Origin: Anaerobaca lacustris
GTDB taxonomy: Bacteria; Planctomycetota; Phycisphaerae; Sedimentisphaerales; Anaerobacaceae
Assembly: GCF_030012215.1 (NCBI RefSeq)
Contig: NZ_JASCXX010000020.1
Span: 1 to 64,000, forward strand
Direction: 5' to 3'
Length of the DNA: 64,000 nucleotides
How positions within the stretch are numbered: position 1 is the first letter of the stretch; every line of letters begins with the position of its first letter. The translations under genes and the position numbers were made by a program. This document shows, piece by piece, positions 50,863-56,913 of the stretch. The notes under the pieces are model-generated. The model did not search any database. It was not told the DNA's origin and saw only the letters and a program-made list of their open reading frames with translations.

Positions 50863-50901
50863 GGGCGGTTAGCTCAGTCGGCTAGAGCACCTGCTTTACA
50901 C
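50863..50901 (+). pseudogene. 5' half of tRNA-Val(UAC), cut in the anticodon loop; likely attachment site
   Basis: GGGCGGTTAGCTCAGTCGGC and TAGAGCACCTGCTTTACAC give the acceptor 5' strand, a perfect D arm and the 5' half of the anticodon arm with anticodon TAC. After TTTACAC the expected GCAGG never appears; the sequence turns AT-richer (AATTCCGGAG...). No T arm or 3' acceptor strand is found downstream within the window. Anticodon loops of tRNA genes are standard integration sites, so 50895-50901 is the probable crossover. Confidence 0.7.
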
Positions 50902-51045: not shown

Positions 51046-51450
51046 TCATAATCCAAGGTGATTTTTGACCTTGGGAAACCGCCGGGGAGGGAGGGAGCGA
51101 GCAGGCGGCTTAAGTAGAGGTCTGACTTTCTTGGCTTCGAGATACTGGTTGAGGGCCGAGCGCCTGATCCGGTAGTGGCCTTTCTTTGCTGTGTCTCCGT
51201 CTTCACCGACAACAAGATCGACGGCTTCGAGTTCACCGTTGCGGATGAGCCGGTAGATGATACTCTTCGACAGCTTGAGTTCCTGAGAGATTTCATCGAC
51301 CGTCAGCCAATCTGACCGCTGTGGGGGTGACGCTGCTTGGATCATATCAAAGAAGCGGCCCAGGCTGTTCAGAAGATCTCTGCACACCGAGCAGCCGCCG
51401 GTATCTGCCGGGTAGTGTTCGTTCTTGTTGTCAAGGGATTGCGGTTTCAT
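51046..51450 (-). CDS. Small HTH (excisionase-like) protein
   Basis: The start at 51450 (ATG) is preferred over a GTG at 51480; neither has a strong ribosome site. The product of about 134 residues has an N-terminal part with CSVCRDLLNSLGRFFDMI. A helix-turn-helix of the excisionase/MerR-like type follows: WLTVDEISQELKLSKSIIYR, LIRNGELEAVDL, then GHYRIRRSALNQYLEAKK. Such proteins direct excision or repress element genes. Its 3' end contains a CCAAGGT/ACCTTGG hairpin (51055-51076). Confidence 0.8.
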   Translation of the reverse strand: MKPQSLDNKNEHYPADTGGCSVCRDLLNSLGRFFDMIQAASPPQRSDWLTVDEISQELKLSKSIIYRLIRNGELEAVDLVVGEDGDTAKKGHYRIRRSALNQYLEAKKVRPLLKPPARSLPPRRFPKVKNHLGL

Positions 51451-51554
51451 TGTTGTTGGTTGTCGTCTGGCGGCACCCACACATCAAAATCGCACTGTAC
51501 ACGCTGCTGCATGATTGAGTTGTTTCAACATCGTTCATCCGCCTGGCGAAGCCC

Positions 51555-52613
51555 TCATCCTGTCGGGCGTTGCTGGGATTCAAGCAATGTGCAGCCACCG
51601 TCCGGACAATACTGCTGCAACGCCGTACCGCAGGGTGGATAAGAAGGGTGCTGGCAGCCGTATCCGGCAGCCTTCTCGATGTCGTTGGGATCAAGTACCA
51701 GGTTGGGATCGTCGATCGCCCTAAGCCGGGCGATTATCTCCAGATAGTGCATATTCAGACCGGCGTAAGCACTGGCGAGACTGTAATACGTCGCATACCT
51801 GGTCCCATCGACAAGCACAGCGGATTCAATGGCTTGAACGCACGGCAGCATCGCCCGATGGTGCGTATGCTCTGCCGAGCCCTCGCTGCACTTTGGACAT
51901 CTGGTACGCTCTTGCTCAATGCGTTTGAGTTCGGCCGTGAACCACCAGGGCGCGTATTTGCCGATGCATGCCTCAAGATAGGAGTCCTCTGGGCGAGGCG
52001 ATGCCGCCATCGCCAGGATCTCATCGACCGGAAGCTCAGCGATGTCGGCTTCGGTCAGGGGGATCTTATACAATCCGCCTGGGCGACGAGAATTCGGAAA
52101 CGTCCATGCGTAGTCTGGTGAGTAGATGCTCAGATCGAGGCAACCAGGTTGAAAGTGGTCCCAGTGGGTGGCGATGTCGGCATAAAGGTCAAAGATCCAC
52201 GGCGAGTAAAAGGCGTCGAAGGTCTGCCAGGGTATGAGCAGTTCGAAGCCGTTTCGGCCATCGAAATACCAATGGCCACAGTCTTCTGGGGCCTGCATCG
52301 CAATAAGGATCTGTTCGTTTGCCTTGAGGAGGCAGCGTTTTGGCTCCTCCAGGTTGTCTTTTGAACGGGCGTGCAGATAAAAGGGGGCCACATACCTCGC
52401 TTGACGATTCGGTTCAGCATAGACACAGATGGAGTGCGACACTGCCGCGTTGTTGAACCGTTTCGGCCATGCCTCCATCGCTTCGTGATCATCGCTTCGG
52501 ATGAAGGCCCGTGCGACAATGGCGCCGCTGGGAGATTGTGCGATCAACTCAATCCAATCGAACTTGTCGTTGTGTCCGGTCAGTTCGTAACCGGTCGCTC
52601 GTTCACAGTCCAT
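51555..52613 (-). CDS. Catalytically degenerate PriS-PriL primase paralogue
   Basis: GGAGGA lies upstream of the ATG at 52613. The 352-residue protein aligns along its whole length with the primase encoded upstream. The catalytic DxD is replaced by His81-Ala-Arg83 (APFYLHARSKDNLEE), and the SGHKGFH motif by DGRNGFE (118-124), so both metal ligands and the nucleotide-binding His are gone. Asp160, LYKIPL and NPRPED-like blocks remain. The C-terminal PriL-type domain keeps its four Cys: Cys258 (MLPCVQAIES), Cys328, Cys336 (QQYC) and Cys341. An extra CPKC (239-242) near His residues may bind zinc. It probably serves as a structural or RNA/DNA-positioning partner. It follows the primase gene by 46 bases. 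Confidence 0.8.
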   Translation of the reverse strand: MDCERATGYELTGHNDKFDWIELIAQSPSGAIVARAFIRSDDHEAMEAWPKRFNNAAVSHSICVYAEPNRQARYVAPFYLHARSKDNLEEPKRCLLKANEQILIAMQAPEDCGHWYFDGRNGFELLIPWQTFDAFYSPWIFDLYADIATHWDHFQPGCLDLSIYSPDYAWTFPNSRRPGGLYKIPLTEADIAELPVDEILAMAASPRPEDSYLEACIGKYAPWWFTAELKRIEQERTRCPKCSEGSAEHTHHRAMLPCVQAIESAVLVDGTRYATYYSLASAYAGLNMHYLEIIARLRAIDDPNLVLDPNDIEKAAGYGCQHPSYPPCGTALQQYCPDGGCTLLESQQRPTG

Positions 52614-52659
52614 TGTGTGTTCCTCCTGGTTGTGTAGTGCACTTGCATGCTCGTGAAGA

Positions 52660-53724
52660 TCACTCCCCCGAAGCTTTGGCACTGTGCTTTCTGTTGTTCT
52701 TCAGCTTGGCATAGAAGCATTTCTCGGGCCGACAGTACTGGCGCAGTGATTCATCATCGCATCCCGGGAACCCGGAATGGTCGCTGGCCCATGCCACGGT
52801 TCGCTCAATATAGTCGGGATCCCGGATAGGATGCCGGCCATCAAGAGCTTCGATTTGTTCGTGGATCTCGTCCGGATGCATGCCAATGTACCGGTAGAAG
52901 CGGGCGAGGGATAAGTACGTCTGATGCCGTATCCCATCAGGAAGAGTAACCTCCTGGATAGCCTTGATGCACGGAGGCATGCGCCAACCGTCACGGAATG
53001 GTTTTGTGGTGCTCACCTGTCCTCTGGAGCCTCCATCCAGCTTTGCAGAAACAGCCAGCGCCCGCCTGTACCATTCAACGGCTTCCTCACACACTTGATG
53101 TCGGGCGAGCGAATCTTCAGGTCGTGGGTTCGCGGCCAGTTTCTTAATGCCATCAATGCTGATGTCCCGCAACTCTTCGTAGGACAGGGGGATCTTGAAC
53201 AGGCCACTCTTACTGTGCCTGGAAAGCAAAATTCTCCAGATTCGTTTACGGGTATATATGCTCTCATCGATGTGACACACACCGGCATCGCGAGCTCGGC
53301 GGGCCATTCTCCTATAGAGGCCCAGCGTGTAGGGCGAATGGAAGGCTCGAAATATCTCGGGGGCAACACTGATATGGAATCCTTTATGGCCGGAGAATGC
53401 GATATCCAGATTGTCTTGCGATAGCCGGATTCTATCCATAAGCATTTCGCACAAAGTGAGCGCGCTTCTCCGCGCCGCCTCGAGATCATCAGGGCAATCG
53501 ATGTCGAAGTGCATGGGAAGAATAAAAGGTGAGTTGTTATTCGGTTCCATATAGATGCCGACTGAACCGAACACGTTCGTGTTGAGGAAACGCCTTCTCC
53601 ATCCCGAAATACCAGTGTAATCGCCTTTGCGGACATAATGGCCCCGCACCATCTTGCCGTTGGGCAGGAGGGCGGCCAGCTCGATGTAGCCATAGGACAT
53701 GCTGTTCGCAAAGATATTTGTCAT
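52660..53724 (-). CDS. Fused PriS-PriL archaeo-eukaryotic primase
   Basis: The 354-residue protein has the AEP catalytic core: PMHFDIDCPDD with Asp74/Asp76, FSGHKGFHISV (111-120) with the nucleotide-binding His, and HIDESIYTRKRIWRI with Asp153. This continues as LLSRHSKSGLFKIPLSYEEL, matching the PriS consensus of Ser-Leu-His-x-Lys-Thr-Gly-Leu. From residue 248 the chain matches the PriL iron-sulfur domain: MPPCIKAIQEV (Cys252), GIRHQTYLSLARFYRYIGMH, PDEIHEQIEAL, then Cys322, Cys331 and Cys336 (QYCRPEKC). Both subunits of a eukaryal-type primase thus lie in one short chain, as in some plasmid primases. It should make primers for element replication. No helicase domain is fused. Confidence 0.85.
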   Translation of the reverse strand: MTNIFANSMSYGYIELAALLPNGKMVRGHYVRKGDYTGISGWRRRFLNTNVFGSVGIYMEPNNNSPFILPMHFDIDCPDDLEAARRSALTLCEMLMDRIRLSQDNLDIAFSGHKGFHISVAPEIFRAFHSPYTLGLYRRMARRARDAGVCHIDESIYTRKRIWRILLSRHSKSGLFKIPLSYEELRDISIDGIKKLAANPRPEDSLARHQVCEEAVEWYRRALAVSAKLDGGSRGQVSTTKPFRDGWRMPPCIKAIQEVTLPDGIRHQTYLSLARFYRYIGMHPDEIHEQIEALDGRHPIRDPDYIERTVAWASDHSGFPGCDDESLRQYCRPEKCFYAKLKNNRKHSAKASGE

Positions 53725-53791: not shown

Positions 53792-54013
53792 GGCATGTCA
53801 CGTTGGACATGCCACTGCCATACGACTGATTTTCACATGACCGGGGCCAATGACCCCGGTGTCAGCGCTGACTGGCAAAGGTGATCTGTTTCGTTCACCG
53901 GCGGACACATCATTTTCGGCGCAGCATTCCTCTTTTTTCAGTGGACCAGCGCCACGCCGGCGGGTCGCTGCAATTCGACATGAAGTTCACACAAACGGGA
54001 CATCATTCGGACA
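53792..54013. other. Palindrome and repeat cluster, candidate replication origin
   Basis: The gap upstream of the primase gene carries three dyads. GGCATGTC/GACATGCC spans 53792-53813 with a 6-base loop, ACCGGGG/CCCCGGT spans 53840-53860, and the perfect palindrome GTCAGCGCTGAC spans 53861-53872. Two iteron-like copies follow: GTTCACCGGCGGACACATCA at 53893 and GTTCACACAAACGGGACATC at 53985. A third, GTTTACGCAAATTACACATC, lies at 54673. No coding sequence occupies 53725-54002. The arrangement fits an origin or a primase-gene operator region. Confidence 0.45.
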
Positions 54014-54344
54014 GTACCGATGGAGGAGCCTCGGAGCCATCAGTATCGGTCTGCGATGGGCCAACTCCTCTGTTTCTTTCCTCTATCGTGCTCGCCTGTT
54101 GTGATGCAGGAAGCCCATCGTATTCGTGACTGTGGTGATCTCTACGGACCGGCCCATACACCAGGAACAGCGCACACAAGCTGACGATACAGGCGGTAAT
54201 GATCGATGTTACGCCCATCAGACCAACCACGTCACAGACACGGTACTCACGGCCCATGGATTCCAGCAGGACGGCCAGGAGCACCATCATTATGAGCATC
54301 AGCGTCACAAGGACGACGACGATTGCAGACACGTACTCTTCCAT
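54003..54344 (-). CDS. Small two-TM protein of the element
   Basis: An excellent ribosome site (AAGGAG) sits before the ATG at 54344. The 113-residue product has two hydrophobic helices (VSAIVVVLVTLMLIMMVLLA and GVTSIITACIVSLCALFLVY) and a hydrophilic Ser/Thr/Glu-rich tail. I do not recognise a family. The stop codon at 54003 lies inside an iteron-like repeat copy. Confidence 0.7.
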   Translation of the reverse strand: MEEYVSAIVVVLVTLMLIMMVLLAVLLESMGREYRVCDVVGLMGVTSIITACIVSLCALFLVYGPVRRDHHSHEYDGLPASQQASTIEERNRGVGPSQTDTDGSEAPPSVLSE

Positions 54345-54683
54345 CTCTATCTCCTTCTTTTTGCTTTTCCAAAGTCTGGTTCTGTGGCACAACCCGATCC
54401 CCATGACGCGGGTGCTCTGTGTGCCGATGTGCAAGTTGGCTCGGCCATAGACCCATCATCGCAGATTTCCAACCGACCCAGCCGACACACGGCTGTCGTG
54501 AAACTGACTTCTGTGTGACTGGAAGGGGTGCTGCCGTTATCGGTATTGACAGGGCGGATGTGGTTTGTTTGGGCGGTTGTAGCGCTGAGGCATTTGACCA
54601 CAGAGACGCCGCTTCGCAGAATCTCCCTGTGAGCTGAATCAGCGAGGGAGGGGTGTTGGAATTTGACACGAAGTTTACGCAAA
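54345..54683. other. Non-coding stretch between element genes
   Basis: About 340 bases upstream of the two-TM gene. No frame in either strand shows motifs or a start signal. It ends with the third iteron-like repeat (54673-54700), which overlaps the 3' end of the next gene. A minus-strand promoter for the two-TM gene should lie here but none is convincing. Confidence 0.5.
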
Positions 54684-55133
54684 TTACACATCATTTTGAC
54701 GGTCCTGGTGTAAGTGGCGGAACAGATCCCGCAGGACTTCTCCTGGAGGTTGGCTTTTATTCAATCCGGTTGGGTATAAGTCGCGCATGGCCTGCCCGAC
54801 GGCCTTGGCGTTTACCTTGAGCCCCATGTTTCTGAGAGCCACTACCAGGTCATGATATTCGGCCCGGCGCTCGGTCCGAGCCGGGCGGCGGGTGCGGCGC
54901 TTATTGAACAGCACCGGCCGACCATGGAGACCAATGCCGGTCTTGCGGATGCGGAGGCATTCTTTCTGGAGATCGGACGGGTAGAAGGCCCGGTGCGTGC
55001 CCGAGCGGACTGGCGGCGGGAAGACCCCTTTCTTCACGAGTTGGTAGAGTCGTGCTCGGGAGAAGCCGAGCTTGCGGGCCATTTCTGTTACAGAGCATAT
55101 GGCCACACAGTCGCGATTCGCAGGTGCATCCAT
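54684..55133 (-). CDS. HTH DNA-binding protein of the element
   Basis: GGAG lies 8 bases before the ATG at 55133. The 149-residue protein has an N-terminal helix-turn-helix of the excisionase/AlpA type: CSVTEMARKLGFSRARLYQL, VKKGVFPPPVRSGTHRAFYP. A basic linker (LFNKRRTRRPARTERR) and a C-terminal helical part (LVVALRNMGLKVNAKAVGQA) follow. It probably regulates the element or binds the repeats. It is 13 bases downstream of the RuvB-like gene, so both share a transcript. The same fold occurs at 51046. Confidence 0.82.
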   Translation of the reverse strand: MDAPANRDCVAICSVTEMARKLGFSRARLYQLVKKGVFPPPVRSGTHRAFYPSDLQKECLRIRKTGIGLHGRPVLFNKRRTRRPARTERRAEYHDLVVALRNMGLKVNAKAVGQAMRDLYPTGLNKSQPPGEVLRDLFRHLHQDRQNDV

Positions 55134-55146
55134 GTTGTATACTCCG

Positions 55147-55840
55147 TTATCTGATGAGCCAGGCGGTCGTCTCGATGTGCCCACGGCCCTTGTCCGTAAG
55201 GATTCGTGTGGATGATTTGCCTTTGGTGATGAGATCTTCCCGAATCAGGTAGGGCTCGATGACTCCCTGGACGGTCAACGGCGGAAGCCCGAGTTTGGCG
55301 CTCAGAGTTCCCAGCGGGGCAGGGCCGCCCCGAGCCAGGATGCTGAGATAGCGACGGTCCGTCTCATCCAGTCCGAGTTCGTCAATCTCCATGTGATGGA
55401 AAGCCTCCTGTGCATCCACCAGCGTGATGATATTGCGGTCATGGCTGACGGCGACCTCCCAGCACGTTTGCAGGTTCCGGTGTAGGGCCTGGCGTGGCAT
55501 GGCTTTGGCACGGCGGGCGATCATCTGTAAGACCTCGTCGGACTCGTACTGCCAGCGGAGAGCGACTGCTCGCTGGCGTACAACCTCCACCAGGTCCTCG
55601 ACGGAGTAGTAATCGAATCGACAATGGATTCGCATTCGATCCCTCAACGCCTCCTGGAGCAAGTACTCGTGCGTCGTCGCGAGGATCATTGTGAACGGGG
55701 CGAGGCGCATAGCGTATCGGTGGCCCGAAGCGACAAAGCCCGGCACTCGTACGATCCCTTCGGAAAGGGCCGTCAGGAGCACATACTGGGCCTCTGAGTT
55801 CAAGCCCTGAGCCTCATCGATGAAGATGGTGGTGCCGGGG
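55147..55840 (-). pseudogene. RuvB-like Holliday-junction ATPase, 5'-truncated
   Basis: From about 55833 the minus strand reads TTIFIDEAQGLNSEAQYVLL (Walker B), FTMILATTHEYLLQEALRDR (sensor 1 and arginine finger), IARRAKAMPRQALHRNLQ (sensor 2), IDELGLDETDRRYLSILARG and VIEPYLIREDLITKG, the RuvB C-terminal winged helix. The normal first 100 residues with Walker A (GPPGLGKT) are absent. The in-frame codons upstream are the antisense of a FecR gene and carry no RuvB motif. The gene is therefore cut at the element boundary and should not hydrolyse ATP as it stands. RuvB on a mobile element points to its own recombination or replication needs. Confidence 0.8.
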
Positions 55841-56913
55841 CCAGAGGTTCCGTCTCCGTTCGGGTAGCCAAGGGTTCTTCCGGATTCATCGTCAGGACGC
55901 CGACGGGCACCGTCGTGGACTACGGTACGGAGTTTGGGGTCGTGGTGAACGGGTACGGCGAGACGGAGGCGTTCGTCTATGAAGGGAAGATCGGCCTTCG
56001 CAGTGGCTCGGACCCTGTGCGTTCCCTGGCTTCGCGCATTCTCACCCAGGGGCAAGCCGGAGCCGTGGATGCCTCCGGCAGGATTGTCGATCGGGACTTT
56101 CAGTCACGACAGGTGATTCGAGAAATGCCGGAGACCAGCGGCTTTGGCATTCCCGGCAAACGGTTCGACCTCGCGGATGCACTGGCAGGAGGCAACGGCT
56201 TTGGTACCGCAGATCCGAACCAGAAGGTGGATCTCCGGACGGCAAGTGTTTCCGGGCTCCGGCACAACGACGTCAATCCTCCGATTGTGGGAATCGTCGG
56301 TACGCCGGCCCCTGCCATACCCTTTGTCGACTTCCTGTTCATCGCCGATGGTAGCTCGGGCCCGGTTCCGGTCAGTTCTACAGGCCAGCGGTTCAGGGAA
56401 TGCCCCGACACGGACGGCAATGCGTTCGCCTACATCACCAACGGCAACTTCCCACGCCACATCCCCGGCGAGTTGATGGAGCAGGTTCTTGGTGGCGTCC
56501 GGTACGGCACACGCAGCAAACCGGCGATATCCATTCACGCCAATGCTGGGGTTACGTTTGATTTGCAGGCGATTCGCGCCAGTATGTCCGGCGTCCGCCT
56601 GGCGCAGTTTACGGGTTTATGCGGAATATCAAAGACGGCCGAGGCGACCCTACGGCGCGAAGGAGAACATGCCAGCCGGACCCGGGCCGACTTTTGGGTC
56701 CTGGTGGATGGTCAAGTCCGATTCCGTCGACAGGAAACGGAGGTACTGTCCGGTGTGACACGGGTCAGCGTCGAACTGCAGGATGACCATCGCTTCCTGA
56801 GCCTCATCGTGACGGATGGTGGCAACGGAAATGGCTTTGACTGGGGCATCTTTGCCGAGCCGGCCCTGAAACTGACACTGGATGAACAAGTGACGGATGG
56901 GTTGGGCGTGTAA
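55840..56913 (+). pseudogene. FecR/NPCBM-domain protein, 5'-truncated
   Basis: The frame is open from 55798, but FecR-like sequence begins near 55843 (GSVSVRVAKGSSGFIVRTPT, then VVDYGTEFGVVVNGYGETEA, VYEGKIGLRSG, LTQGQAGAVDASG). The C-terminal third is NPCBM-like (VSVELQDDHRFLSLIVTDGG, NGFDWGIFAEPALKLT). Planctomycete FecR proteins normally start with a cytoplasmic anti-sigma-like part and a membrane helix; both are missing. The GTG at 55915 lies inside the FecR domain and has no ribosome site. The loss coincides with the point where the RuvB-like gene is cut. Downstream host genes follow in the same direction. Confidence 0.78.

What the first reader, a model, noticed from the sequence alone, without database searches (positions are those of the whole stretch)
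51555..53724. Tandem active and inactive PriS-PriL fusion primases
Two adjacent, co-oriented genes encode full-length paralogues that fuse a PriS-like catalytic part with a PriL-like four-cysteine domain. The upstream copy has the DxD, SGHKGFH and Asp153 sites. The downstream copy has replaced DxD by HAR and SGHKGFH by DGRNGFE, but has kept all four PriL cysteines and gained a CPKC pair. A duplication followed by loss of catalysis, with both genes maintained, suggests a heterodimeric primase in which one chain polymerises and the other holds the iron-sulfur or template-binding role. That mirrors the eukaryal PriS/PriL split, re-evolved from a fused ancestor. Fused PriS-PriL primases are known from archaeal plasmids such as pTN2; a paired dead copy in a bacterial element is, to my knowledge, undescribed.
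Basis: partly seen in the sequence, partly recalled or inferred. Interest (0 to 1): 0.92.

Follow-up and report, generated by a model that had tools for sequence, protein, structure and literature searches.

The report
Dead primase beside a live primase
In a truncated mobile element of a planctomycete bacterium, a gene for a DNA-priming enzyme sits next to an old relative whose catalytic site has been replaced but whose gene shows long-standing selection, which points to a primase-shaped protein doing a job that is not catalysis.

Summary
P1 (52660-53724, minus strand) is an intact archaeo-eukaryotic primase (AEP) with a PriCT-1/PriL-like four-cysteine domain. P2 (best start 52613, not 52682) has the same layout but HAR for DID, DGRNGFE for SGHKGFH and no motif-IV arginine; it keeps the third aspartate, the lysine and all four cysteines. 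Both models have the AEP fold (Z 14.5-14.9 to archaeal PriS). The proposed history does not hold: P2 is not a local duplicate of P1 (AU p = 5e-8). It belongs to an older dead lineage with a frameshifted homologue and a fragment in two other genera; a second dead pair occurs in two more genomes (one loss or two: unresolved). Dead genes show constraint comparable to live ones and share new residues at lost catalytic sites. Dead copies also occur without an orthologous live partner, so an obligate P1-P2 heterodimer is not the rule; the pair exists in one genome only. The window element is a tRNA-Val-integrated remnant without integrase. Best reading: P2 is a pseudo-primase with a non-catalytic DNA- or partner-binding role; a heterodimer with P1 is possible, untested. 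No published inactive AEP paralogue was found in the library searched.

The parts
52660..53724 (-). P1: live AEP primase with C-terminal PriCT-1/PriL-like four-Cys domain (354 aa)
   Evidence: motifs DID, SGHKGFH, D153, R164, K177, C252/C322/C331/C336; PHROG_16345 E 5e-25; AF2 model pLDDT 88, Z 14.9 to PriS 1zt2
51555..52613 (-). P2: catalytically dead AEP homologue (352 aa), four Cys kept, CPKC-x6-HxH insert
   Evidence: D74H, D76R, S111D, H117E, R164T relative to P1; AF2 model pLDDT 84, Z 14.5 to PriS 1zt2; SD AGGAGG before ATG 52613
52614..52659 (-). 46-nt P1-P2 intergenic gap with ribosome-binding site AGGAGG for P2
   Evidence: sequence
51861..51899 (-). codons of P2 CPKC-x6-HxH (residues 239-251), possible zinc knuckle
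   Evidence: pattern shared with the G125 dead homologue, absent from the other ingroup sequences compared
51046..51480 (-). HTH_17 excisionase-like protein of the element
   Evidence: Pfam E 1e-12, PHROG excisionase; 65% identical to the HTH next to a lone dead AEP in G119
54003..54434 (-). small membrane protein of the element
   Evidence: 43% identical to the protein upstream of the dead AEP in G119
54684..55184 (-). AlpA/MerR-type HTH regulator of the element
   Evidence: Pfam Phage_AlpA, MerR_1; homologue in the L008 element, E 2e-19
55147..55840 (-). RuvB-like AAA+ gene, 5' (Walker A) half missing
   Evidence: RuvB_C E 1e-15; RuvB_N match starts at profile position 86 of 159
50863..50901 (+). 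5' half of tRNA-Val(TAC), interrupted at the anticodon loop: integration site
   Evidence: intact tRNA-Val beside the same nitroreductase and tRNA-Ala in G005, G002, G119
55830..55868 (.). breakpoint: element fused to a FecR-like gene lacking its 5' end
   Evidence: FecR homology starts at 55846-55868; no tRNA-Val 3' half found in the window

Best explanation
P1 is the live primase of a tRNA-integrated element of Planctomycetota. P2 is a pseudo-primase: a member of an old, non-catalytic AEP lineage that keeps the AEP fold and the four-Cys PriCT/PriL-like domain. The two genes probably came together by shuffling between elements rather than by duplication in place, and lie where they can be translated from one transcript. 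Shown: motif loss, fold, four Cys, shared replaced residues, past constraint, tRNA site, truncation. Inferred: P2 binds single-stranded or primer-template DNA through its PriCT domain and modulates or recruits a live AEP (P1 here, possibly other primases elsewhere) without polymerising. A P1-P2 complex is plausible but not shown. In this genome the element has lost its integrase and much else, so the pair may no longer serve replication.
For: Catalytic residues: both metal Asp of motif I, Ser/His of motif II and Arg of motif IV changed; D153 and K177 kept. Changing DID to LIL, or the motif-IV Arg alone, abolished PolpTN2 activity (PMC5862659). Fold kept. The four Cys are the only invariant columns in 21 four-Cys domains including three dead ones; family members match PriCT_1 (E 7e-10) and PriL (E 9e-5). 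P2 and G125 form a 100/100 clade and share D74H, D76R, S111D and CPKC-x6-HxH, so their ancestor was most simply already dead; since then dN 0.50 with saturated dS, as in live pairs (0.49-0.55). The PriCT part is more conserved than the AEP part in dead pairs (0.55 vs 0.39; 0.49 vs 0.40). Adjacency, 46-nt gap and strong SD. Genomes with a dead copy often also hold a second AEP-like gene of another family (3 of 4, against 5 of 161 in the order; p = 6e-5, confounded by phylogeny).
Against: The pair is in one genome. Dead copies stand without an orthologous live AEP in G119 and G125. One dead homologue is frameshifted (G125) and one is a fragment (G029), so the gene is often lost. The window element is a remnant. 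No complex, DNA binding or expression was tested. dS is saturated, so dN/dS is only bounded, and present-day selection on the window copy is not measured.
Confidence: 0.5

Rival explanations
1. P2 acts on its own or against competitors: a dominant-negative or regulatory decoy that binds origins, primers or the primases of other elements and limits their replication (element incompatibility).
For: A dead copy without an orthologous live partner, next to excisionase-like HTH and integrase, in G119; in G125 a different AEP-like gene lies in the same stretch, and G000 and G119 carry that gene in separate tRNA elements.
Against: In the window P2 directly follows a live relative; no test of interference; co-occurrence may only reflect genomes rich in such elements.
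Confidence: 0.25
2. P2 is a decaying relic without function.
For: Element truncated and without integrase; related copies frameshifted (G125) or reduced to a fragment (G029).
Against: Intact 352-codon ORF with strong SD; two diverged dead pairs keep 42% identity at saturated dS; new residues shared at lost catalytic positions; all four Cys kept in three of four.
Confidence: 0.17
3. P2 keeps or regained nucleotide binding or another chemistry: H/R in place of the metal Asp and acidic residues in place of Ser/His form a remodelled pocket that binds a nucleotide without metal or catalyses something else.
For: D74H, D76R and S111D are identical and H117 is acidic in P2 and G125, with D153 and K177 kept.
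Against: Only two sequences, one from a frameshifted gene; the second dead clade has other replacements and lacks the lysine; no structure with ligand.
Confidence: 0.08

Closest known systems
PolpTN2 (Thermococcus nautilus pTN2) and PrimPol-PV1 AEPs of bacterial mobile elements (PMC3973330, PMC5862659)
   Same: AEP domain followed by a PriL/PriCT-like domain, with four Fe-S-type cysteines in PolpTN2; carried by mobile elements
   Different: PolpTN2 is active and much longer; the P1 family here is about 350 aa with nothing beyond the two domains; P2 has lost the catalytic residues
Archaeal/eukaryal primase PriS-PriL (with PriX in Sulfolobus, PMC5700102)
   Same: a catalytic AEP chain works with non-catalytic chains; the C-terminal domain resembles the PriL Fe-S region
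   Different: PriL is not a dead copy of PriS; here both chains carry both domains; no complex has been shown
Phage and plasmid primases matched by PHROG_16345/18685 (Bacillus phage KLEB27-3, Moorella phage MTATph1, Thermus phages, Bacillus plasmids)
   Same: P1 aligns over about 75-84% of its length at 22-30% identity
   Different: they match the live copy far better than P2, which finds only partial weak matches there

Membership tests
AEP superfamily (P1) | AEP fold | tested here: met
   Z 14.9, rmsd 2.4, 174 residues to PriS 1zt2
AEP superfamily (P1) | motifs I (DxD), II (SxxxxxH), III (Asp) and motif-IV Arg | tested here: met
   D74, D76, S111, H117, D153, R164
AEP superfamily (P2) | AEP fold | tested here: met
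   Z 14.5, rmsd 2.7, 174 residues to PriS 1zt2
Active AEP primase (P2) | catalytic motifs I, II and IV | tested here: not met
   H/R, D/E and T at these positions
PriL/PriCT Fe-S domain (P1, P2) | four conserved cysteines | tested here: met
   four invariant columns in A6 (members were picked with a four-Cys pattern)
PriL/PriCT Fe-S domain (P1, P2) | significant profile match | tested here: inconclusive
   family members reach PriCT_1 E 7e-10 and DNA_primase_lrg E 9e-5; P1 itself 0.007 and 0.019, below cut-off; P2 gave no such match in the full-length scan
PriL/PriCT Fe-S domain (P1, P2) | bound 4Fe-4S cluster | not testable with these tools
   needs purified protein
Heterodimeric primase | P1-P2 complex | not testable with these tools
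   no complex prediction available here
tRNA-integrated element | tRNA gene split, against an intact empty site in relatives | tested here: met
tRNA-integrated element | own tyrosine integrase | tested here: not met
   no candidate ORF between 50901 and 55840 in the window; integrase ORFs beside the homologues in L008, L009, L010 and L115

The most novel reading that the evidence does not exclude
A two-chain primase in a bacterial element in which one AEP chain polymerises and a dead AEP homologue supplies the template or Fe-S function, with the dead chain's former metal site remodelled to basic residues and kept by selection.
Probability: 0.25. Interest if true: 0.8.

Novelty: new variant of a known kind. 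Interest (0 to 1): 0.55.

Why it matters
A conserved pseudo-primase lineage would show that the AEP fold can serve mobile-element biology without catalysis. It would give a small testable system for how catalytic and accessory primase functions divide between chains, and for competition between replicating elements. No inactive AEP paralogue turned up in the open-access library searched.

Tried and rejected
Local tandem duplication: rejected by tree test. One origin for all dead copies: neither supported nor rejected (AU p = 0.42). Viral contigs for further dead copies with P2 alone, the G119+G030 pair and the P2+G125 pair: none. Plasmids and phages with P2: only partial, weak matches to primases. 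The genome-contig scan used live-motif patterns, so its all-live result is biased and is not used as a census; the profile searches are. A sequence search of the PDB with P2 found no credible match; the fold search did. The fold matches span about residues 7-225 only, so the C-terminal domain has no structural test of its own. The second AEP-like gene (AEP2) has only weak profile support (phrog_2478 E 4e-4). Searches failed on coordinates: 81 and 84 were redone; the PADLOC scan (89) and the AEP2 alignment (96) were not redone.

Full report
OBSERVATION. The two genes exist as described. P1 is 52660-53724 on the minus strand. P2 is best read from ATG 52613, behind AGGAGG, 46 nt after the P1 stop; the listed GTG at 52682 would overlap P1. 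Motif positions: P1 DID 74-76, SGHKGFH 111-117, D153; P2 HAR 81-83, DGRNGFE 118-124, CPKC 239-242.

WHAT THEY ARE. PHROG profiles match both to primase (E 5e-25 and 3e-12). AlphaFold2 models (pLDDT 88 and 84) match archaeal PriS 1zt2 with Z 14.9 (rmsd 2.4, 174 residues) and 14.5 (rmsd 2.7, 174 residues); these matches span about residues 7-225 only. The C-terminal domain is PriCT-1/PriL-like: in 21 family members the only invariant columns are the four cysteines (members were chosen by a four-Cys pattern), with PriCT_1 matches up to E 7e-10 and PriL up to E 9e-5 in single members. Kazlauskas and co-workers argued that PriCT and the PriL Fe-S domain are related (PMC5862659), and PolpTN2 is a characterised PriS-PriL fusion (PMC3973330). 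So fused AEPs in mobile elements are known; the dead copy is the new part.

THE DEAD LINEAGE. Profile searches over all 161 held genomes of the order and samples of 397 (class) and 392 (phylum) genomes found dead copies in four genomes of one family: G000 (window), G125, G030 and G119. G029 has a C-terminal fragment that matches P2 (50% over 64 aa, E 1e-16) far better than P1. Live close relatives are single copies. P2 and G125 share D74H, D76R and S111D, have an acidic residue for H117, keep D153 and K177, and share CPKC-x6-HxH; G030 and G119 have basic residues at D74, an insert in motif II and no K177. The G125 copy is frameshifted and lacks the last Cys; its two reading-frame pieces were joined with an X for the comparison only.

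HISTORY. P2+G125 and G030+G119 are each 100/100 clades. P1 and P2 as sisters is rejected (AU p = 5e-8); all four dead copies as one clade is not rejected (p = 0.42); P1+P2+G125 is not rejected (p = 0.36). These groups were named after the first tree was seen, which the tests do not allow for. So the dead lineage is older than the present neighbourhood, but whether catalysis was lost once or twice is open. The arrangement membrane protein - dead AEP - HTH - integrase in G119 resembles the window with P1 lying between the membrane protein and P2, which suggests assembly by recombination; this is inference.

SELECTION. dS is saturated in every pair, so only bounds are possible. dN is 0.50 (P2/G125) and 0.56 (G030/G119), against 0.49-0.55 for live pairs, and third positions differ most. 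The PriCT part is more conserved than the AEP part in dead pairs (0.55 vs 0.39; 0.49 vs 0.40), as in live ones (0.58 vs 0.50). The dead form was under constraint; whether the window copy still is cannot be measured here.

THE ELEMENT. The 5' half of tRNA-Val(TAC) lies at 50863-50901; three related genomes have the intact gene beside the same nitroreductase and tRNA-Ala. The far end is a breakpoint near 55830-55868, where a RuvB-like gene without its Walker A half meets a FecR-like gene without its 5' end. There is no integrase. Relatives' elements sit beside tRNA genes, with integrase ORFs and, in several, DnaK-like and vWA genes. The window element is therefore a remnant, or its end is an assembly fault; I could not tell which.

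PARTNERS. G119 has a dead copy with HTH and integrase but no live relative of P1 in the genome by profile search. G125 has a different AEP-like gene (AEP2: FFDID, GSGNGHY) in the same stretch. AEP2 occurs in 5 of 161 genomes of the order and in 3 of the 4 with dead copies (hypergeometric p = 6e-5), but two of these share a genus and all concern the same kind of element, so this is a lead only. For G030 the contig ends about 250 bp upstream of the dead gene, so a neighbour there cannot be excluded.

MECHANISM. Shown: loss of the residues AEP catalysis needs, fold, four cysteines, past constraint. Inferred: P2 does not polymerise and acts through DNA or partner binding. A P1-P2 heterodimer would fit the gene order here but cannot be the general rule for the dead lineage. 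Rivals are a decoy or regulator, a relic, and a remodelled nucleotide pocket.

VERDICT. Confirmed observation, partly supported interpretation, new variant of a known kind. Searches for inactive AEP paralogues in the library gave nothing relevant, which is not proof of absence.

Noticed in passing
L213:8888-9991 (G000 C9), L116:44-1234, L214:8694-10115: A second AEP-like family (AEP2, FFDID and GSGNGHY motifs in L116) with weak profile support, in tRNA-associated elements of the same order, followed by a small conserved protein and, in two of three, a radical SAM gene.
   Followed up: partly
L008, L009, L010, L118, L119, L213, L214: Elements next to tRNA genes carry DnaK-like (Hsp70) ATPases, mostly with vWA proteins, near the primase; one literature search found no description.
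   Followed up: partly
window 55830-55868: Head-to-head fusion of 5'-truncated RuvB-like and FecR-like genes: deletion scar or assembly join.
   Followed up: partly
L215:5191-5592, L216:5340-5747: G119 has two more copies of the window-type HTH excisionase (62-66% identical) on contigs where no AEP was found.
   Followed up: no
L131:8384-9436: A close live P1 homologue (44-45%) on a contig labelled Bacteroidales: transfer or misbinning; the contig ends 121 bp after the gene.
   Followed up: no
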